Assembly: GCF_900114835.1 (NCBI RefSeq)
Contig: NZ_FOUJ01000008.1
Location: forward strand, 1-64,000
DNA length: 64,000 bases
Direction: 5' to 3'
Source: Methanolobus profundi
Lineage (GTDB): Archaea; Halobacteriota; Methanosarcinia; Methanosarcinales; Methanosarcinaceae
Shown here: positions 3,645-22,005 of the stretch, one piece after another
Position numbering within the stretch: position 1 is the stretch's first letter
Layout of the letters: each line of letters opens with the position of its first letter
The notes under the pieces: model-generated
Told to the model about the DNA's origin: nothing
The model's input: the letters and a program-made list of their open reading frames with translations, nothing else
Databases searched by the model: none
Made by a program: the position numbers and the translations under genes

Positions 3645-4991
3645 TTAGTCTATGGTATCATGCATGCGAGGTTTGATCTCATTTAGACCACTTGACTCGC
3701 TTTCATCACCATTCTCATCATGATCTCTGCGATGCATTTCCTTGCTGACCATCTGGTTGAACATGAAGTACTTCTTCACGTATGCCATGATCTCTTCATC
3801 GGATATGCAGGAAACCCTCTTTTCATCATTATAGAGCTTCTGGATATCTGTCTGGATCGCTCTGAGACGTTTATCGTTCTTATCGATCTCGATATTAACT
3901 TCCAGCAGTTCGTTCAGTGTTTCCTGGACCTTATATCTGAGTACTTCGATGCCTGATGAATCACCGATAAGGAATATCCTCTTTCCACCAACGATCTCAG
4001 GTGGGTATGGCTCGTAGGTGAACGGATTCTTGATAACACCGGCAGAGTGGATGCCTGATTCATGGGCGAACACGTTGTTACCTACAACAGACTTGTTCCT
4101 TGGTATACGGATACCGATCTCATCCTGCATGAACTTTGAGAACTCTACGATAGAATCAAGGTTATACTTGTCAAATCCTTCGATACGCCTTGCCAGGAAC
4201 AACAGAAGCTTCTCCATTTCAGCATTACCTGCCCTTTCTCCTATTCCTAAGAATGTAACGTTGGACCAGTTTGCACCGTGCCAGTAGCCTGCAATAGAGT
4301 TAGCGACTGCAAGGCCGAAATCATCATGGCAGTGGGTCTCGATGTTCTTGACATTGAGCTCATCCTTCAGGTACTTTGTGATCATTGGTATTCCAAATGG
4401 CTCGTCAACACCTTCAAAAGGTATACCGAACCCGATGGTATCACAGATACGAATAGTACAGTCAGGATCGATGTCCATTATCTTCTTGATAAGCGGGAAT
4501 GTAAAATCGTAATTGTCTGCACGGGTCATATCTTCGATATGAGCCCTGGTACGAAGGCCATGGTCCACTGCATACTGGAGTGCATTGAGATATTTCTCCT
4601 CAGCTGTCTCACGGGTCAGTCCCATCTTATCGATTATGTGCGGGTCTGATACTGACATCAGGACACCGGTTTCCTCGATACCGTCAATGTTGAGTACCAT
4701 ATCAATATCAGCAGGATTAGCACGTGCCCATCCGGTGATCTCCGGGAATTCATATCCCTGATCCATCATGAGCTTGATAGCCTTTCTGTCCCTTTCGTTG
4801 TACACGAATGACTCAAGTTTCTCTATTCCTATCTGATGCAGGTAGTTATATATCTGGAACTTCTGCTGACTCTTCATAACAATACCGGGCATCTGTGCCC
4901 CGTCCCTGATAGTGCTGTCACTGATAGATACTTCCTGCCCCAGAGGCAATTTTATTTTTGGAAGATCATCATAATCCTTGTATATTTTCAT
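3645..4991 (-). CDS. Re-citrate synthase-like enzyme (DRE-TIM aldol synthase)
   Basis: 448-aa member of the isopropylmalate/homocitrate synthase superfamily, which condenses acetyl-CoA with a 2-oxo acid. The DSTIRDGAQ loop near the N terminus (metal and substrate site), the HCHDD metal motif and NVFAHESGIHSAG are all visible. The block GYEFPEITGWARA followed by ETGVLMSVSD resembles the Re-type citrate synthase of Clostridium kluyveri more than LeuA or homocitrate synthase, as far as I recall that sequence. Methanosarcinaceae run a partial oxidative TCA branch to 2-oxoglutarate, so citrate formation is a sensible role, but the substrate is inferred. The start is ATG 4991 with AAGGAGG eight bases upstream; an ATG 14 codons earlier lacks a site. 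A charged tail (about 425-448) follows the catalytic barrel. Alternative: another acyl-CoA/2-oxoacid condensing enzyme. Confidence 0.6.
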   Translation of the reverse strand: MKIYKDYDDLPKIKLPLGQEVSISDSTIRDGAQMPGIVMKSQQKFQIYNYLHQIGIEKLESFVYNERDRKAIKLMMDQGYEFPEITGWARANPADIDMVLNIDGIEETGVLMSVSDPHIIDKMGLTRETAEEKYLNALQYAVDHGLRTRAHIEDMTRADNYDFTFPLIKKIMDIDPDCTIRICDTIGFGIPFEGVDEPFGIPMITKYLKDELNVKNIETHCHDDFGLAVANSIAGYWHGANWSNVTFLGIGERAGNAEMEKLLLFLARRIEGFDKYNLDSIVEFSKFMQDEIGIRIPRNKSVVGNNVFAHESGIHSAGVIKNPFTYEPYPPEIVGGKRIFLIGDSSGIEVLRYKVQETLNELLEVNIEIDKNDKRLRAIQTDIQKLYNDEKRVSCISDEEIMAYVKKYFMFNQMVSKEMHRRDHDENGDESESSGLNEIKPRMHDTID

Positions 4992-5240
4992 TCCATACCT
5001 CCTTTGTATAGATCTTGTGATCCCGGAACGCATATCCTATGCAAAAATGAGTCAATATCAAATATTGATGTCTAACTGGAAAGCGATCAAACTCCGGGTA
5101 ATTATCTTTATTGAAAGATGAACTCCATCTATTATAGGCAAACTTCTACTTAAAATGTCCTTTCGTTATCTGTAATTTAATAATTTTCTTGAGATGTGAG
5201 TGACAATAAACCTTTAAATCTTTATAATTTAAATTAGTAC

Positions 5241-5753
5241 ATGATTCATATGTGGAGCACATTACTCAGGAAGTTCGAAAAATATCCGGCCCAGCAAAAG
5301 GTCCTGAAGGTCCTTTTTGAAAGAGGTTTCCAGGTAAACGATGAAGGCAAGGTGACCTCAGGCGCAATAGAGATAGCCCACACACAACTTGCCAGAGAAG
5401 CAGGTGTTGACAGGCGTGTTGTTGATTCCACCACGGAGGTCATCCTTTCAGATGACCAGTTGAAAAAGATCTTCCAGAATGTAAGGTCCATACCATTTCT
5501 TCGTGATGTAGCCCCTCTTCTTGGTCAGGGTGTTGTTATAATCACTCCTGATGATGCATCACACAAGGGTATAATCTCAGAGGTATCCACAGTGATCGCA
5601 AAGCATAATATCAGTATCAGGCAAGCTGTATCAGATGACCCGTTCTTCACTAACGAGCCTAAGCTCACCATAATAACAGATACCAAGGTCCCTGGAAGTA
5701 TTGTAGAAGAATTGCTCAAACTGGATTCAGTAAAGGGTGTCAGTATCTATTGA
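5241..5753 (+). CDS. ACT-domain protein, predicted amino-acid-metabolism regulator
   Basis: 170-aa cytoplasmic protein. The N-terminal half looks helical and could be a small winged helix (about 10-75, with LAREAGVDRRVVDSTTEVI). The C-terminal half (about 95-170) is an ACT-like beta-alpha-beta domain of the kind that binds amino acids. It matches the conserved archaeal family annotated as a predicted regulator of amino acid metabolism. It is divergent from the citrate-synthase-like gene, with a short shared promoter region (TATAATTTAAAT about 5222-5233). With that TATA element so close, the mRNA is probably leaderless; ATG 5241 and ATG 5250 are both possible starts. Effector and targets cannot be read from sequence. 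Confidence 0.65.
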   Translation: MIHMWSTLLRKFEKYPAQQKVLKVLFERGFQVNDEGKVTSGAIEIAHTQLAREAGVDRRVVDSTTEVILSDDQLKKIFQNVRSIPFLRDVAPLLGQGVVIITPDDASHKGIISEVSTVIAKHNISIRQAVSDDPFFTNEPKLTIITDTKVPGSIVEELLKLDSVKGVSIY

Positions 5754-9126: not shown

Positions 9127-10266
9127 ATGGGGCATATCAGAACAGCAGTATTAGTTTCAGTTCTATTTACAACAGTGATATTACTATTCACTTCAGTGTC
9201 TGTAGCAGCAACAGGTATGGGAATGTCAGCTTCATCAATGGATCCTGATGGTGAGAATTACGAATTTCTGATGGTAAGGGTCGTCACTCCGGATTCATTG
9301 GAGGTCACAGTGGGGGATACAGTGACCTGGCGGAACCTGCAACGTCCAAAGGTGCCGATCGTTCTTGTGAGCATTGACGGTCTGTGGGATGATGCGACCC
9401 TTTACTATGGCAAGACCTTTTCATATACATTTGAAGAGCCAGGGACCTATGCATTTACAGTTCAGGACAATCCTGCAATGGCAGGAACTATAGTCGTATC
9501 TGAGGGAACGATGCGTTCGGTAGCCGATACATCTGAGGATGAAGAAATGATGGTGCCGGAACCTGTGATAATGATGACACAGTCTAACGAACAGGTCATG
9601 AGCCGTATGCAGGAACAGGTTATGGATCATAGGAATGAGTTCCTTATCGTCCGCACACTTACACCAACTTCGATGGAGGTCTATGCAGGTGAGGCTGTCA
9701 CATGGAGGAATCTCCAACGCCCAAAGATGCCTGTAGTGCTCATAAGCGATGAGGGTCTGTGGGATGATCAGACCCTGTATTATGGTAAGACATTCTCCTA
9801 CATCTTTGATGAACCGGGTACCTATAGTTTCAGTATTCAGGACCATCCTGAGATGTCCGGGACCGTTGTAGTCTCTGAGAAAAGGATGGCATCTGTAGAA
9901 GATGAGGATACTGAAGCGGTAATGGTAGCACCAGGGCCTGTAATGATGAAAGAGGGTGAGGAAGTCGGAACCATGGAACAGGTAAGGGTACGTGTGGAGG
10001 AACAAACGATGGAACATAACTACGAGTTCCTTCTCGTCCGCGTGGCAACTCCTGAGTCGATGGAGATCGAAGCAGGTGAGACTGTTACATGGAGAAATCT
10101 CCAGCGTCCAAAGTTCCCTCTTGTACTTGTGAGTGATGATGGTCTCTGGGATGACCAGACCCTTTACTATGGTAAGACATTCTCATATACGTTCGAGAAT
10201 GCAGGAACTTACAGTTTCAGTGTTCAGGGCAATCCTGCAATGACAGGTACTATAGTTGTAAAATAA
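9127..10266 (+). CDS. Secreted protein with three cupredoxin-like repeats
   Basis: 379-aa exported protein: signal peptide (1-28), then three homologous beta domains at about 45-125, 170-250 and 299-379. Each shows the cupredoxin signature of TVTWRN, DGLWDD, YYGKTFSY.F, PGTY.F and a final GTIVV or GTVVV strand. The Cys and the His copper ligands are absent in all repeats: where a type I copper protein has Cys-x-x-His-x-x-Met, the repeats read VQDNPAM, IQDHPEM and VQGNPAM, keeping only the Met. The linkers are acidic and Met-rich (EEMMVPEPVIMM, QVMSRMQEQVMDH). A strong ribosome site (GGGAGGA) precedes ATG 9127. The role may be structural, or metal binding through the Met-rich linkers; both are inference. 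Confidence 0.75.
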   Translation: MGHIRTAVLVSVLFTTVILLFTSVSVAATGMGMSASSMDPDGENYEFLMVRVVTPDSLEVTVGDTVTWRNLQRPKVPIVLVSIDGLWDDATLYYGKTFSYTFEEPGTYAFTVQDNPAMAGTIVVSEGTMRSVADTSEDEEMMVPEPVIMMTQSNEQVMSRMQEQVMDHRNEFLIVRTLTPTSMEVYAGEAVTWRNLQRPKMPVVLISDEGLWDDQTLYYGKTFSYIFDEPGTYSFSIQDHPEMSGTVVVSEKRMASVEDEDTEAVMVAPGPVMMKEGEEVGTMEQVRVRVEEQTMEHNYEFLLVRVATPESMEIEAGETVTWRNLQRPKFPLVLVSDDGLWDDQTLYYGKTFSYTFENAGTYSFSVQGNPAMTGTIVVK

Positions 10267-17064: not shown

Positions 17065-17706
17065 ATGGGTAGGGAAAGCTTTCATCCGGGGGAGTTCGAA
17101 GAAGCACTCCTGACCATGAACAGGGTTGCTGCTAAGAATATGATACTCAGTGAGTTCAATGGCAACAATGCGTTTGAACTGATAAATGAAATTATCTCTC
17201 CTGCACTTCAGAATATTGGCGAGAGTTGGTCGAATGGTGATATTGCATTGTCCCAGGAATACATGGCCAGTAAAATGTGTGAAGAAATAGTGGAATCTTT
17301 GCTCCCTGCTGAAAGCCCTGTAAGGAAGGATATTCCTTCAATAGGTATCACAACCCTTGGGGATGAACATATGCTTGGGAAACGTATAGTCACGTCATTT
17401 CTCAAGGCAAATGGGTTCAATATCCATGATTATGGTGATATGGGTGTGGAAATGGTTCTCAGAAAGATCCGGGATGATGGGATAGAGGTCCTTATGGTCT
17501 CTACATTAATGCTTAATCTTGCTCTTGAGGTCAAAAAGCTCAGAGAGATGCTCGACAGGGAGAATATCGGTACGAAGATCATAGTCGGAGGGGCACCTTT
17601 CCTTTTTGATCGTGATCTCTGGAAAGAGGTGGGTGCTGATGCTATGGCAGTCGATGCTATGGAGTCTGTAGAGAAGATACGTGAGGTTATGGGGGTAAGC
17701 CGGTGA
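17065..17706 (+). CDS. Corrinoid (cobalamin-binding) protein, MtaC-like
   Basis: 213-aa two-domain protein of the methyltransferase corrinoid family. A helical cap domain (about 10-85, with ISPALQNIGESWSNGDIALSQEYMASKM) precedes a B12-binding Rossmann domain (about 92-210) with the base-off cobalamin motif GDEHMLG (DxHxxG, His ligand), VSTLML and IVGGAPF. In methylotrophic methanogens such proteins carry a methyl group between a substrate-specific methyltransferase and a UroD-type CoM methylase. The next gene overlaps by four bases and is UroD-type, but no substrate-specific methyltransferase is adjacent. Two histidine kinases follow, suggesting a sensory rather than catabolic role. Confidence 0.85.
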   Translation: MGRESFHPGEFEEALLTMNRVAAKNMILSEFNGNNAFELINEIISPALQNIGESWSNGDIALSQEYMASKMCEEIVESLLPAESPVRKDIPSIGITTLGDEHMLGKRIVTSFLKANGFNIHDYGDMGVEMVLRKIRDDGIEVLMVSTLMLNLALEVKKLREMLDRENIGTKIIVGGAPFLFDRDLWKEVGADAMAVDAMESVEKIREVMGVSR

Positions 17707-18737
17707 GCAGTGATGAAATGACACCTATGGAGAGGGTATCCGCAACGCTTGGACATGAAGTGCCTGACAGGGTACCATTCTTCTTGTTGCTGACCACACA
17801 TGGTGCTGACGAGTTCAATGTTTCCATCGAGAAATATTTCTCGAATCCTGAAATGGTGGCAGAGGCCCAGATAAGGATGCAGCAGAAATATGGACATGAC
17901 TGTTATTATGCGTTCTACTATGCTTCTCTGGAGGCTGAGGCATGGGGAGGCAATTCTATCTTTTACCCGGATGCACCTCCTAATTCGGGCAGACCTATCA
18001 TAGATCACTTTGAGGATATCCATTCTCTGGAAGTGCCTGATGTTGCGGGCTCAGCTATACTGAAGAACGTATTGAGGACCATAGAGGTCTTAAAACAGAA
18101 TTCTGGGAATGATATACCTATAATTGGTGTTGTGATGTCGCCTTTTTCCCTTCCCACTATGCAGATGGGGTTCGGCCCTTATCTTGATCTTATTTATGAT
18201 GAACCAGAGGCTTTCCGGGAACTGATGAACGTGAACGAAGAATTCTGTGTTCAGTGGGCTAATTTGCAGGTAGAAGCAGGCGCAACTGCAATATGTTACT
18301 TTGACCCTGTATCTTCATCGACTATGATCCCTCCTGAGCTTTACAGGAGAACGGGCTTCAAGGTGGCCAGAAAGACCATCTCTCAAATAAAAGCTCCTAC
18401 TGTCACCCACATGGCTTCGGGAAGGTGCCTTCCTGTCATTGATGATATCATGGACACCGGTACGGTAGCGATCAGCACAAGTTCACTTGAACCTCTTTCA
18501 GATATAAAGGCCGCATGTAAGGGTAAAGTCACAGTAGCTGGCAATCTTAATGGGCTGGAAATGAGACATTGGTCGCCTCAGGAAACTGAAGATAATGTCC
18601 GATCAGCAATTGAGGAAGCAGCTGATGACGGAGGATTCATCCTGTCAGACAACCACGGTGATATCCCTTATGGTGTATCTTCTGAAGTTCTCATGGATCT
18701 ATCCTCATCCGCAATAAAATGGGGTCAATACAGGTAG
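17703..18737 (+). CDS. UroD/MtaA-family methyltransferase-like protein with altered zinc site
   Basis: 344-aa TIM-barrel protein of the uroporphyrinogen decarboxylase/methylcobamide:CoM methyltransferase family (MTPMERVSATLGHEVPDRVPF start, FDPVSSSTMIPPELYRR middle). In MtaA/MtbA the zinc ligands are His and Cys of an HxC motif plus a late Cys. Here the first reads HMASGRC (no Cys two residues after His) and the late one reads SDNHGD, with His in place of Cys. Either a different ligand set binds zinc or the site is lost. It starts at GTG inside the stop of the corrinoid gene (GTGA overlap, GGGGGTAAG site), so the two products are made together and probably interact. Confidence 0.75.
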   Translation: MSSDEMTPMERVSATLGHEVPDRVPFFLLLTTHGADEFNVSIEKYFSNPEMVAEAQIRMQQKYGHDCYYAFYYASLEAEAWGGNSIFYPDAPPNSGRPIIDHFEDIHSLEVPDVAGSAILKNVLRTIEVLKQNSGNDIPIIGVVMSPFSLPTMQMGFGPYLDLIYDEPEAFRELMNVNEEFCVQWANLQVEAGATAICYFDPVSSSTMIPPELYRRTGFKVARKTISQIKAPTVTHMASGRCLPVIDDIMDTGTVAISTSSLEPLSDIKAACKGKVTVAGNLNGLEMRHWSPQETEDNVRSAIEEAADDGGFILSDNHGDIPYGVSSEVLMDLSSSAIKWGQYR

Positions 18738-18742
18738 TTATT

Positions 18743-20410
18743 ATGTTCTATGATCATTATGTAATTGCACCGGAATTCATCAGAAGAGAGATCGGATCCC
18801 TGGTGGAGGGTAACACTCAGTTGCAGGGGATAAAGACCTCTTTTTTTCTCCCTTCCAGCGATAAAGATAATGAATGTCTTATCTTTGATGCGATCAAGGA
18901 AATGAAATGTGACAACGATATATTGCTTCTTTGTGATGCATCCTGCCCCCCGGTATCTGTCCCGGACGATTACTGCGGCTCGTTGAAGGTCAGCAGACCT
19001 GTGGATCTCTATAATATGTTCGCCGGGGATCGAAGACTTCAGGAACACAAGGATGCAGGCGCTTTTATCACGATACCCGGATGGCTTGAAAGCTGGCAAC
19101 ACGATCCCGATGGTATGCTTTCTTCTATGCTCTTAGATGGTTCTTTCTCAGAGAGATACTCTTCCATCCTGATCCTGGATACTGGTCTGTATCCCGGCAT
19201 GCCTTTGATCGCAAAGAGATTTTCAGAGCAGGTAGGTGTTCCTTTCAGTATTATGGATGTGGGTATCGAGCATTTCAAACTTGAATTTGACAACATGGTA
19301 CTTCAATGGAGTATTGAGAAGAAGCAGGATCAGTTGAAAGTATGTAACCGTAAGGCAGCTTCATATGCGATGTCAATTGATTTCATAAAGACCATTGCAG
19401 ATCTTACTGATGAAGCAACTGCTATAGATTCTATATGTAAGTTGTTCAGCACTATGTTCGCTCCTAAGAACGTTGTCTATTATTCTTTTCATGAAAATGA
19501 GATCGAGCTTAAGTATTGTAAGTCACCTGAATCTGAAAAGGAACTCATAATGAATTTGAGGGATTCGGATTCCAATTATGTTGTTTTTGATAAGGAGGAT
19601 GGTTTCGCCATAAAGATATTGGCGGCAGAGGACCTTCTTGGTATTATCGAGATACATGGGGTGGCTTTTCCCGAATATCTGGATGAATATCTCAGTGTAG
19701 GTTATGATCTGGCAAAGGCATCAGGACTTGCGATCTCTAACATAAGGCGGTATCATGAGCTATTCCGCTCCAGAGAAGAGCATGTAAAGCTCACAGAGAC
19801 TCTCAGGACAACTAATCGTATTCTGAGACATGATATAGCAAATGACCTCCAGATAGTGCTGGGAGCACTGGACCTGCTCGAAGAGAACTATGATGAGAAG
19901 TTCCTCCTAATGATAAGGAAGGCTGCTAACAAAAGTGCTTCACTTATTGAGAATATGAAAGAACTCGATCAATTGTCAGTCGGTGTTGATCAGTTAGAGA
20001 TCCTGAATGTTAAAGAGCTTATGGAGAGCATAATGGGTAAGCATTCGGTGGAATTCAATATGGTCGGGAACTGTGCTGTAATGGGTGACAAAGCTCTGTC
20101 ATCAGTTCTTGATAATATTATCAGTAATGCCATAGTTCACGGGGATGCCAGCAAGATCGATATTGTGATGCAGAATGATGATACTTCCTGTAAGATATCT
20201 ATATCTGATAATGGTGTAGGTATTCCTGACAGTGTGAAGCCAAAGATATTTGATGAGGGGTACAAGTATGGAAAGACCGGTCACACAGGTTTTGGTCTCT
20301 ATATTGCGAAAAAGACAATTGAGCGCTATAGTGGGTCAATACATGTGGAAGACAATGATCCGGTAGGTTCAACATTTGTCATAGGGCTGAAGCCTGCCAG
20401 AATACATTAA
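18743..20410 (+). CDS. Soluble histidine kinase with DUF1638-like sensor domain
   Basis: 555-aa cytoplasmic protein. The first about 190 residues resemble DUF1638 (CDASCPP, GAFITIPGWLESW, LILDTGLYP), a domain often found beside corrinoid methyltransferases, although the HDC motif I would expect is replaced by PVDL. A GAF-like region (about 205-345) follows, then the phosphoacceptor helix RILRHDIANDLQ (His about 363) and an HATPase domain (NIISNAIVHGD, DNGVGIPD, GHTGFGLYIAKK) to the end. ATG 18743 lies six bases after the UroD-like stop with CAGGTAG upstream. No response regulator domain or gene is adjacent. The sensed signal may be the state of the corrinoid/UroD pair; this is inference. Confidence 0.7.
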   Translation: MFYDHYVIAPEFIRREIGSLVEGNTQLQGIKTSFFLPSSDKDNECLIFDAIKEMKCDNDILLLCDASCPPVSVPDDYCGSLKVSRPVDLYNMFAGDRRLQEHKDAGAFITIPGWLESWQHDPDGMLSSMLLDGSFSERYSSILILDTGLYPGMPLIAKRFSEQVGVPFSIMDVGIEHFKLEFDNMVLQWSIEKKQDQLKVCNRKAASYAMSIDFIKTIADLTDEATAIDSICKLFSTMFAPKNVVYYSFHENEIELKYCKSPESEKELIMNLRDSDSNYVVFDKEDGFAIKILAAEDLLGIIEIHGVAFPEYLDEYLSVGYDLAKASGLAISNIRRYHELFRSREEHVKLTETLRTTNRILRHDIANDLQIVLGALDLLEENYDEKFLLMIRKAANKSASLIENMKELDQLSVGVDQLEILNVKELMESIMGKHSVEFNMVGNCAVMGDKALSSVLDNIISNAIVHGDASKIDIVMQNDDTSCKISISDNGVGIPDSVKPKIFDEGYKYGKTGHTGFGLYIAKKTIERYSGSIHVEDNDPVGSTFVIGLKPARIH

Positions 20411-20550
20411 CAGCCTTCTGATTAAATGATTTTTTGGTAATCCTGTGCATGATAGTGAATAGTTGTGTATTGCAAGCCTATCATTATATGTTATGACTGT
20501 CCATTATGTAATGGATATAAATTTATGGAGTACATCTAAGGGGTCTGGAA

Positions 20551-22005
20551 TTGGGGGAAACACATTCATATAATCGTTATTCTGAAACCATATTCATATT
20601 TTTTATTCTTGTATGTCTGTACTTTGTAAGCCTGAAAAGTTTCCTTCTTTTTCATAGCATTGTTGAAATAGCAAGTGTTGTGGTAATATCGGCTGTTTTT
20701 CTAATTACCTGGAACTCGAGACATTACCTGAAGAATTCCTATCTTCTTTTTCTTGGAGTAAGTTTACTTTTTGTGGCTGGTATCGATCTTATCCATGTGA
20801 TGAGCTATAAGGGGATGAATATATTCGCTGATGGTGGGGCAGATCTCCCAACCCAGTTATGGATCGCTGCAAGATATTTACAGGCAATTTCTTTTTTGAT
20901 AGCCCCTTTCATGTTGGGAAAAGTATTGAATGTACATAAGATATTTTCTATATACTCTGTGGTGACCATCTCTATTTTAGCATCAATATATCATGGTTAT
21001 TTCCCGAAATGCTTCATTGAAGGAAGCGGGCTAACTCAATTCAAGATAATAAGTGAATATGTGATCTCCTTGATCCTGCTGGCTTCATTCATTATTCTCC
21101 GCCAGCATAAAGAAGAGTTTGATATAAAGGTCTATAATTTACTATCTGGTGCGATCATCCTGACCATTTTGGCAGAGCTGGCATTTACATTCTACATCGA
21201 TGTCTATGGCTTTTCAAATCTTGTAGGACATTATTTTAAATTACTTTCATTCTATCTGATATACAAAGCTATAGTCGTTACAAGTCTTACAAGACCATAT
21301 GACCTTCTTTACAGGGAACTTAAGATGAGGGAATATGAACTTGTGAAGAAGAAGGAAGCACAAGAGCGTCTTCTGGAAACTCTGGGTCTTGTTAACCAGA
21401 TCCTTCGTCATGATATTCTCAATGATCTCAATATCATTTCTCTGTCAGTTGATAATCTCAAAGAAAGAATGAATGAAAGAGAGCTTGATCTGTCCGAGAA
21501 AGCTGTGAGGCATAGTCTGCAAATTATCAGGGAGATGAAAGATATGGAATCACTGATGTATATAAGAGATATGAAGACGATCGATCTTCGTACTCTTACA
21601 ATGGAGATCGCACAGGAATTCCCAATTGATGTGGATGTACATGGTACCTGTTCTGTAAAAGCGGATAGTGGTCTCCATTCTGTTATTGGTAATATCATCC
21701 TGAATGCAATGGTCCACGGCAAGGCGGATAAGGTGGATATATCAATGAGCTCACAAGATGATCATTGTGAGATGCGAATATCAGATAATGGGAGTGGGAT
21801 CCCTGATAAGATAAAAGAACGTGTTTTTGAGGAAGGCTTCAAGTATGGTCCTTCCGGGCATACTGGTCTGGGTCTGTATATAGTGAAGCAGATCGTAGAG
21901 AGATATGGCGAGATATCTCTGGAGGATAATGTTCCTTCGGGTGCGACATTTGTACTGAAGTTCTATCACAATTATCCGGTAAATGAAGAAAAAGAAGCTA
22001 AGTAA
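20551..22005 (+). CDS. Membrane histidine kinase with MASE3 sensor
   Basis: 484-aa protein. The N-terminal half is a seven-helix membrane domain of the MASE3 type (GIDLIHVMSYKGMNIF between helices 3 and 4, TRPYDLLYREL exit). A short coil follows, then the phosphoacceptor ILRHDILNDLNII (His about 287) and an HATPase domain (NIILNAMVHGK, DNGSGIPD, GHTGLGLYIVKQ). The kinase core is clearly paralogous to that of the upstream soluble kinase. The start is TTG 20551, supported by AAGGGGT seven bases upstream; no ATG or GTG fits. It lies 140 bp after the preceding gene, which may leave room for its own promoter (AATATAAAT-like sequence about 20510-20525). Confidence 0.8.
   Translation: MGETHSYNRYSETIFIFFILVCLYFVSLKSFLLFHSIVEIASVVVISAVFLITWNSRHYLKNSYLLFLGVSLLFVAGIDLIHVMSYKGMNIFADGGADLPTQLWIAARYLQAISFLIAPFMLGKVLNVHKIFSIYSVVTISILASIYHGYFPKCFIEGSGLTQFKIISEYVISLILLASFIILRQHKEEFDIKVYNLLSGAIILTILAELAFTFYIDVYGFSNLVGHYFKLLSFYLIYKAIVVTSLTRPYDLLYRELKMREYELVKKKEAQERLLETLGLVNQILRHDILNDLNIISLSVDNLKERMNERELDLSEKAVRHSLQIIREMKDMESLMYIRDMKTIDLRTLTMEIAQEFPIDVDVHGTCSVKADSGLHSVIGNIILNAMVHGKADKVDISMSSQDDHCEMRISDNGSGIPDKIKERVFEEGFKYGPSGHTGLGLYIVKQIVERYGEISLEDNVPSGATFVLKFYHNYPVNEEKEAK

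What the first reader, a model, noticed from the sequence alone, without database searches (positions are those of the whole stretch)
17065..22005. Corrinoid protein, altered UroD protein and two histidine kinases as one sensory system
A B12-binding protein (GDEHMLG) overlaps a UroD/MtaA-like protein whose zinc ligands differ (HMASGRC, SDNHGD). A soluble histidine kinase with a DUF1638-like N terminus follows after six bases, then a MASE3 membrane kinase with a sister kinase core. No substrate-specific methyltransferase is present. DUF1638 is otherwise met next to corrinoid methyltransferases, so its fusion to a kinase suggests that the methylation or redox state of a corrinoid, or a methyl donor, is read by the kinase. 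Order, overlaps and motifs are seen; sensing is inferred. I know of no described system of this composition.
Basis: partly seen in the sequence, partly recalled or inferred. Interest (0 to 1): 0.82.

Follow-up and report, generated by a model that had tools for sequence, protein, structure and literature searches.

The report
Corrinoid methyltransferase parts as signalling module
Three adjacent genes (a vitamin-B12-type corrinoid protein, a methyltransferase-like protein with a changed metal site, and a sensor protein that usually carries the corrinoid-linked DUF1638 domain) stay together in archaea and in many bacterial phyla while the output end of the sensor is swapped freely, so they look like an undescribed B12-based sensing device.

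Summary
In this Methanolobus genome a corrinoid protein (17065-17706), a UroD/MtaA-like protein (17703-18737) and a DUF1638-GAF histidine kinase (18743-20410) form a tight cluster; a MASE3 kinase follows (20551-22005). The first three genes are a real unit. In a scan of 84,980 prokaryote genomes the UroD subfamily was found at 265 places; of 72 retained loci with full flanks all have the corrinoid gene next to it and 71 a DUF1638/GAF gene, in about a dozen phyla. The third gene's front is constant but its output varies: histidine kinase (with PAS or receiver), GGDEF, or a Cys4 tail. That is the signature of a sensory input module. The UroD proteins form one clade in which the catalytic His-Cys-Cys zinc site is His-Ala-His; the corrinoid DxHxxG site is intact. 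Neighbours are mostly signalling genes. In Azoarcus KH32C the module sits inside a methanol-oxidation island.

Corrections: the MASE3 kinase is not core; DUF1638 is missing in about a sixth of systems while the GAF domain stays; the UroD protein may itself be the methyltransferase. Reading of corrinoid state is likely but inferred. No paper found describes the system.

The parts
17065..17706 (+). Corrinoid (B12-binding) protein, 213 aa; helical cap plus Rossmann domain, DxHxxG (DEHMLG) intact; cap motif IGxxW(x9)EY
   Evidence: orthologues in 72/72 wider loci
17703..18737 (+). UroD/MtaA-like protein, 344 aa, TIM-barrel model; HxASG...SDNHG in place of HxCG...PGCG; start GTG, 4-base overlap with the corrinoid gene
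   Evidence: one clade in tree
18743..20410 (+). Transducer histidine kinase, 555 aa (ATG 18743; alternative ATG 18719): DUF1638 - GAF - DHp/HATPase, H-box, N, G1 and G2 motifs intact
18743..19333 (+). DUF1638 domain of the kinase (approximate limits)
   Evidence: Pfam 27.5 bits, matched residues 64-187 of the 563-aa frame; relatives
19334..19753 (+). GAF domain of the kinase (approximate limits)
   Evidence: AlphaFold2 model, pLDDT 88.7; VIA-align Z 17.2, rmsd 2.1, 139 aligned to PDE6 GAF chain 3jab_B
20551..22005 (+). MASE3 membrane histidine kinase, kinase core 44% identical to that of the transducer; lineage-specific neighbour, not part of the conserved core

Best explanation
A three-protein sensory input module built from corrinoid-methyltransferase parts. 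The small corrinoid protein holds a B12-type cofactor. The UroD-like protein docks on it and sets or tests its state, for example by methylating it from a C1 compound through an altered metal site, or by letting it be oxidised. The state of the pair is passed to the N-terminal DUF1638-GAF (or GAF-only) region of the third protein, which switches its output: histidine kinase here, GGDEF, PAS-kinase or Cys4 tail elsewhere. Shown by sequence: gene order, domain make-up, intact cofactor motif, altered zinc site, constant front with variable output, wide distribution. Inferred: physical complex, bound corrinoid, the signal and the direction of the response. The link to methyl or C1 compounds is the most likely signal but the least secure step.
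For: Order kept in 72/72 (corrinoid) and 71/72 (DUF1638/GAF gene) loci with full flanks, across about a dozen phyla. Third gene: DUF1638 in 49, HATPase in 46, GGDEF in 5, receiver in 9 of 68 by Pfam; Cys4 tail in 11 of 74. Among 20 Methanolobus genomes in both surveys kinase and UroD are both present (9) or both absent (11). Distance matrices of the three proteins correlate, Spearman 0.64-0.76. DxHxxG in 104/105 corrinoid proteins. Nearby genes: receiver domain in 26, HATPase in 20 of 119. Natural decay: G060 has neither corrinoid nor UroD at the locus and its kinase front is replaced by other sequence, G056 has lost UroD and the kinase front. DUF1638 is needed with a RamA-like protein for methionine synthesis in Phaeobacter (PMC5764234). 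C1 context: the window's genome has 14 B12-binding_2 loci and five MtaA/MtbA-type UroD proteins; Azoarcus KH32C carries the module between fae/fhc genes and a PQQ methanol/ethanol dehydrogenase, Zoogloea beside pqqB and a pqqC-like gene.
Against: No biochemistry. DUF1638 is absent in 12 of 74 third genes, so it cannot be the only reader. The C1 neighbourhood is seen only in Zoogloeaceae; most hosts are sulphate reducers, Chloroflexota, magnetotactic or cable bacteria not known to me as methylotrophs. No corrinoid activase (RACo) was detected in 10 of 33 host genomes, some of them drafts. The corrinoid cap (W-x9-[VEI]-Y) differs from that of methyltransferase corrinoid proteins. Distance correlation can partly reflect shared descent of the hosts.
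Confidence: 0.6

Rival explanations
1. Methyl-compound sensor by turnover (a sharper form of the best explanation): the UroD-like protein is a working non-thiol methyltransferase (for methanol, a methoxy or N-methyl compound) that methylates the corrinoid protein, and the methylated form signals.
For: Closest structure is the methanogen methyltransferase of MtaA/MtbA type (4ay8, VIA Z 40.9, rmsd 2.2, 332 aligned). O-methyltransferases of the superfamily change their Cys ligands (PMC10418091). His236 and His318 invariant. Azoarcus methanol island.
Against: First zinc Cys has become Ala/Ser and no carboxylate stands at either site; no demethylating second step or activase beside it; hosts often without C1 context.
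Confidence: 0.35
2. Redox or oxygen sensor: the corrinoid is used as a redox group (Co(II)/Co(I)) and the UroD protein is a non-catalytic adaptor.
For: Catalytic Cys ligands lost in all members; many hosts live at oxic-anoxic boundaries (titles: Electrothrix, Thiomargarita, Magnetobacterium, Magnetococcales); DUF1638 in bacteria has four near-invariant Cys.
Against: UroD is the most conserved of the three (mean identity 0.61 against 0.45 and 0.28), with invariant active-site residues, more than an adaptor should need; Methanosarcinaceae have lost three of the four Cys.
Confidence: 0.25
3. Light sensor of the cobalamin type, like CarH.
For: Cap carries GxxW as in CarH; cobalamin-domain photoreceptors are fused to GGDEF and GAF outputs; 8j2y, a GGDEF protein, is among PDB matches.
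Against: The EH motif is VY, EY or IY; hosts include subsurface and sediment organisms; CarH-type sensors need no UroD partner.
Confidence: 0.06
4. Not a sensor: the pair is a small metabolic or corrinoid-repair enzyme system and the third gene is only its regulator.
For: Corrinoid and UroD proteins are enzymes elsewhere; DUF1638 is linked to corrinoid reactivation.
Against: The third protein's front end is constant and its outputs are swapped, which an ordinary operon regulator would not need; no recurrent metabolic gene accompanies the pair; the trio keeps one order across phyla.
Confidence: 0.12

Closest known systems
Cobalamin-binding-domain photoreceptors (CarH and CBD-GGDEF/GAF fusions)
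   Same: B12-type cofactor domain controls swappable outputs; GxxW in the cap; DxHxxG-type lower-ligand site
   Different: Cofactor domain fused to the output, no UroD-like partner or DUF1638; EH signature absent here
MtaA/MtbA methylcobamide:CoM methyltransferases
   Same: Same fold and superfamily; nearest solved structures 4ay7/4ay8
   Different: Zinc site HxC...C lost; score far below the MtaA/CmuA cut-off (125.7 vs 235.4 bits); separate long-stemmed clade; no catabolic operon
Type 1 mlp gene clusters (Kountz and Balskus, PMC10418091)
   Same: UroD-family proteins with a corrinoid protein, widespread in anaerobes
   Different: Those have several Mlps with His-Cys-Cys, a Ram/RACE activase and no signalling protein; no mention of kinases in the text
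MsmS / RdmS kinases of Methanosarcina acetivorans
   Same: Sensor kinases tied to methyltransferase (methyl-sulphide) regulation in methanogens
   Different: Heme or thiol sensors built of PAS/GAF, no H-box, no corrinoid or UroD partner described
DUF1638 with RamA-like protein in B12-dependent methionine synthesis (Phaeobacter, PMC5764234)
   Same: DUF1638 working with a corrinoid protein and, probably, its redox state
   Different: Stand-alone, metabolic, not fused to signalling domains

Membership tests
MtaA/CmuA methyltransferases (TIGR01463) | Score over curated cut-off 235.4 bits | tested here: not met
   125.7 bits
MtaA/CmuA methyltransferases (TIGR01463) | Zinc ligands His-x-Cys ... Cys | tested here: not met
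   His-x-Ala-Ser-Gly ... Asp-Asn-His-Gly in the window and throughout the subfamily; paralogues have HxCG ... PGCG
URO-D superfamily (PF01208) | Score over cut-off and TIM-barrel fold | tested here: met
   186 bits vs 23.9; model TM 0.87 to 4ay7
Methyltransferase cognate corrinoid proteins (TIGR02370) | Score over cut-off 215.3 bits | tested here: not met
   71.8 bits; best PDB relative is a monomethylamine corrinoid protein, 3ezx, E 3e-15
B12-binding proteins (PF02310 + PF02607) | Both domains over cut-off and DxHxxG lower-ligand motif | tested here: met
   54.3 and 38.1 bits; DEHMLG
DUF1638 (PF07796) | Score over cut-off 27 bits | tested here: met
   27.5 bits, borderline; 49 of 68 relatives match; hhalign E 4e-8 to stand-alone DUF1638
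DUF1638 (PF07796) | Known solved fold | tested here: inconclusive
   No PDB relative by sequence; fold lists are filled by the GAF part
CarH-type cobalamin photoreceptors | Signature GxxW, EH, GxxH, GxxxP | tested here: not met
   GxxW present, EH replaced by EY/VY/IY; GxxxP not checked
Type 1 mlp gene clusters | Mlp2 + Mlp3 with corrinoid protein and Ram/RACE | tested here: not met
   Single UroD protein, no activase-like gene beside it in the window; definition
Sensor histidine kinases | H-box plus N, G1, G2 ATP-binding motifs | tested here: met
   ILRHDIANDL, DNIISNAIVHG, DNGVGIPD, GHTGFGLYI; invariant H363, N462, D489 in 17 orthologues; HATPase_c 72.7 bits
MsmS/RdmS-type kinases | H-box absent, heme or thiol PAS/GAF sensor | tested here: not met
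   H-box present; definition

The most novel reading that the evidence does not exclude
A new, cross-phylum class of signalling input in which a corrinoid methyltransferase half-reaction has been turned into a sensor: a UroD-type protein methylates (or fails to methylate) a dedicated corrinoid protein depending on a C1 compound such as methanol, and a DUF1638-GAF transducer reads the cobalt state and drives interchangeable kinase, c-di-GMP or Cys4 outputs.
Probability: 0.35. Interest if true: 0.92.

Novelty: categorically new. Interest (0 to 1): 0.82.

Why it matters
Cobalamin is known in signalling mainly as a light sensor and as a riboswitch ligand. A three-protein module made from corrinoid-methyltransferase parts, kept in order in archaea and about a dozen bacterial phyla with swapped outputs, would add a new class of chemical sensor. 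It would give DUF1638, a family of unknown function tied to corrinoid activation, a testable role, and would offer a route to how methylotrophs and anaerobes sense methyl compounds or corrinoid redox state, now an open question in methanogens.

Tried and rejected
Four-gene system with the MASE3 kinase: rejected, not linked outside part of Methanolobus. Catabolic methyltransferase operon: not seen among 119 neighbours (only the 25 commonest of 126 families are shown) nor in the window. Photoreceptor: signature only partly present. Known fold for the DUF1638 part: nothing found; sequence search of the PDB gave only chance saposin matches and the fold searches were filled by GAF domains, so this part is barely tested. 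General C1 neighbourhood: proteins of the Azoarcus island searched against the 80 loci gave no C1-specific match elsewhere. Phages: none. Plasmids: one, Azoarcus. Two apparent exceptions to the gene order: L140's corrinoid gene had only been missed by my gene caller; L108 has a different third gene. Literature: 9 searches, no description of the composition; the library lacks most subscription papers.
Full report
WHAT IS THERE. The window is contig C12 of a 3.1 Mb genome. Its genus holds Methanolobus psychrotolerans: genome G009, listed as same genus, has the trio on a contig of the same length (74,804) and position as record NZ_MBKP01000021.1. Four genes run on the + strand between nadA-like and translation-related housekeeping genes (gene names from the sequences, my reading): corrinoid protein, UroD-like protein, DUF1638-GAF histidine kinase, MASE3 kinase. 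Families and scores. The corrinoid and UroD genes overlap by 4 bases (GTGA). The conserved kinase start is ATG 18743, 5 bases after the UroD stop; several relatives start at this Met.

THE TRIO IS A CONSERVED UNIT. In Methanosarcinaceae, kinase relatives were fetched with flanks and the order corrinoid-UroD-kinase was found in 19 of 20 loci, counting one where the kinase is split into a DUF1638 gene and a GAF-kinase gene (G002) and one where the UroD gene is broken by a stop (G046); the exception is G060. In 20 Methanolobus genomes seen in both surveys the kinase and the UroD protein are both present (9) or both absent (11). A scan of 84,980 genomes with the UroD alignment gave 265 places (best 80 kept), from Methanosarcinaceae and Methanomicrobiales, Thermodesulfobacteriota, Nitrospirota, Chloroflexota, Bacteroidota, Pseudomonadota, Myxococcota, Verrucomicrobiota, Riflebacteria, Aminicenantes, Neomarinimicrobiota and SAR324 (titles). 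Of 72 loci with full flanks 71 showed the corrinoid gene and 71 the DUF1638/GAF gene close to UroD. The missing corrinoid gene (L140) was a gene-calling error, it lies within 4805-5746, so the count is 72/72. In the two Electrothrix loci (L104, L143) the order is UroD-corrinoid. L108 is a real exception for the third gene. Hosts include complete or isolate genomes (Desulfonema magnum, Azoarcus KH32C, Methanolobus), so mis-binning does not explain it. In sampled groups the subfamily is in 29 of 393 genomes of the archaeal phylum, 20 of 192 of the Desulfonema class and 6 of 369 of a proteobacterial class.

CONSTANT FRONT, SWAPPED OUTPUT. Among 68 third-gene proteins Pfam finds DUF1638 in 49, HATPase_c in 46, HisKA in 27, receiver in 9, PAS in 8, GGDEF in 5. 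Eleven of 74 end in a CxxCK-IRDD-GYW-FSHG-CxxC tail that no Pfam family in that list covers. With my own profiles 61 of 74 have DUF1638 and GAF, 12 GAF only, 1 DUF1638 only at a contig end. So GAF is the most constant receiver, and DUF1638 is usual, not obligatory. Neighbouring genes are mainly signalling genes (26 receiver, 20 HATPase of 119). Pairwise distances of the three proteins correlate (Spearman 0.64, 0.74, 0.76), as expected for shared inheritance; part of this may be host phylogeny. Decay cases fit: G060 has no corrinoid or UroD gene at the locus and its kinase has other (PAS-like, by eye) sequence in place of most of DUF1638; G056 has a shortened corrinoid gene, no UroD, and a kinase without DUF1638.

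THE PARTS. Corrinoid protein: DxHxxG in 104 of 105. The cap reads IGxxW(x9)[VEI]YM, unlike the F-type cap of the genome's methyltransferase corrinoid proteins and lacking the EH of CarH-type photoreceptors. UroD: 45 sequences, 53-72% identical to the window's, with His236, Ala238, Gly240, Asp316, Asn317, His318, Gly319 invariant in the sampled alignment (the Azoarcus and Zoogloea copies read GENHG). hhalign to the genome's MtaA/MtbA paralogues puts His318 on the last zinc Cys; the first is Ala/Ser. The family forms one side of a well supported branch (99/98) on a very long stem; phyla are mixed inside, which suggests transfer, but inner support is weak. Model pLDDT 89.3, closest to 4ay8/4ay7 (Z 40.9 and 40.7, rmsd 2.2 and 2.1). 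Transducer: model pLDDT 88.7; GAF part clear (Z 17.2, rmsd 2.1, 139 aligned). Bacterial DUF1638 parts keep four cysteines (37, 35, 37, 33 of 38), of which Methanosarcinaceae keep one (10 of 12); stand-alone DUF1638 proteins have Cys in three apparently corresponding motifs (CxxFEDE, YGLCGN, DDCIGA). This suggests an ancestral metal or thiol site that the window's lineage has largely lost.

MECHANISM. DUF1638 is genetically tied to B12-dependent methionine synthase together with a RamA-like protein in Phaeobacter (PMC5764234), and more abundant in Ruegeria grown on methylated osmolytes (PMC12478193). Hence the most likely reading: corrinoid plus UroD protein form the sensing pair, and the DUF1638-GAF or GAF region reads it. 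What is sensed is inference. For a C1 or methyl compound: the methylotrophic setting of Methanolobus, the MtaA-like fold, the precedent that O-methyltransferases of this superfamily change the Cys ligands (PMC10418091), and the Azoarcus KH32C plasmid, where the module and a second kinase lie between fae/fhcABCD and a PQQ methanol/ethanol dehydrogenase, with mch and cofactor genes beyond. In Zoogloea, same family, pqqB and a pqqC-like gene lie beside it (pqqC by eye). Against generality: no such genes near the other loci. For redox: loss of the catalytic ligands and hosts at oxic-anoxic boundaries. RACo activase was found in 23 of 33 host genomes, so reductive activation of corrinoids is common but not universal among hosts.

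THE MASE3 KINASE. It has a kinase core 44% identical to the trio's, sits after the trio in 9 of 14 Methanolobus loci, and occurs alone in others (L178, L179). It may share the pathway in some species, but it is not part of the conserved system.

NOVELTY. Nine full-text searches found no description of this composition. Nearest are cobalamin photoreceptors, MtaA-type enzymes, type 1 mlp clusters and MsmS/RdmS kinases; each fails at least one defining feature tested here. B12-based sensing as such is known (CarH), so a stricter reader could call this a new variant; I rate the input module as categorically new because no sensor made of a corrinoid protein plus a methyltransferase-like partner plus a DUF1638-GAF transducer was found. 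Its biochemical function is unproven.

Noticed in passing
L186 12772-34011 (Azoarcus sp. KH32C plasmid pAZKH, NC_020548.1 263-284 kb): The module and a second, receiver-containing kinase are embedded in a methanol-oxidation/H4MPT/RuBisCO island.
   Followed up: partly
L075, L077, L079, L080, L083, L086-L088, L119, L120, L125 (C-terminus of third gene): About 50-residue Cys4 tail CxxCKxIRDDxGYW...FSHGxCxxC as the output of GAF or DUF1638-GAF proteins; no Pfam family in the tally covers it.
   Followed up: no
L040 and L045 (genome G003): One genome carries two diverged copies of the trio, one with an extra corrinoid gene upstream (L040 11308-11967).
   Followed up: no
L041 8518-10405 (genome G002): The transducer is split into separate DUF1638 and GAF-kinase reading frames; fission or degradation not decided.
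   Followed up: no
L046 8595-10964 (genome G060): Orphan kinase with the DUF1638 front mostly replaced by PAS-like sequence, corrinoid and UroD genes absent.
   Followed up: partly
L055 (G000:C7:982837-983769): A further divergent UroD-family protein in the window's genome (120 bits, very long branch), role unknown.
   Followed up: no
window 9127-10266: Secreted-looking protein with three similar repeats (VTWRNLQRP ... GTYSFSVQ), perhaps cupredoxin-like.
   Followed up: no
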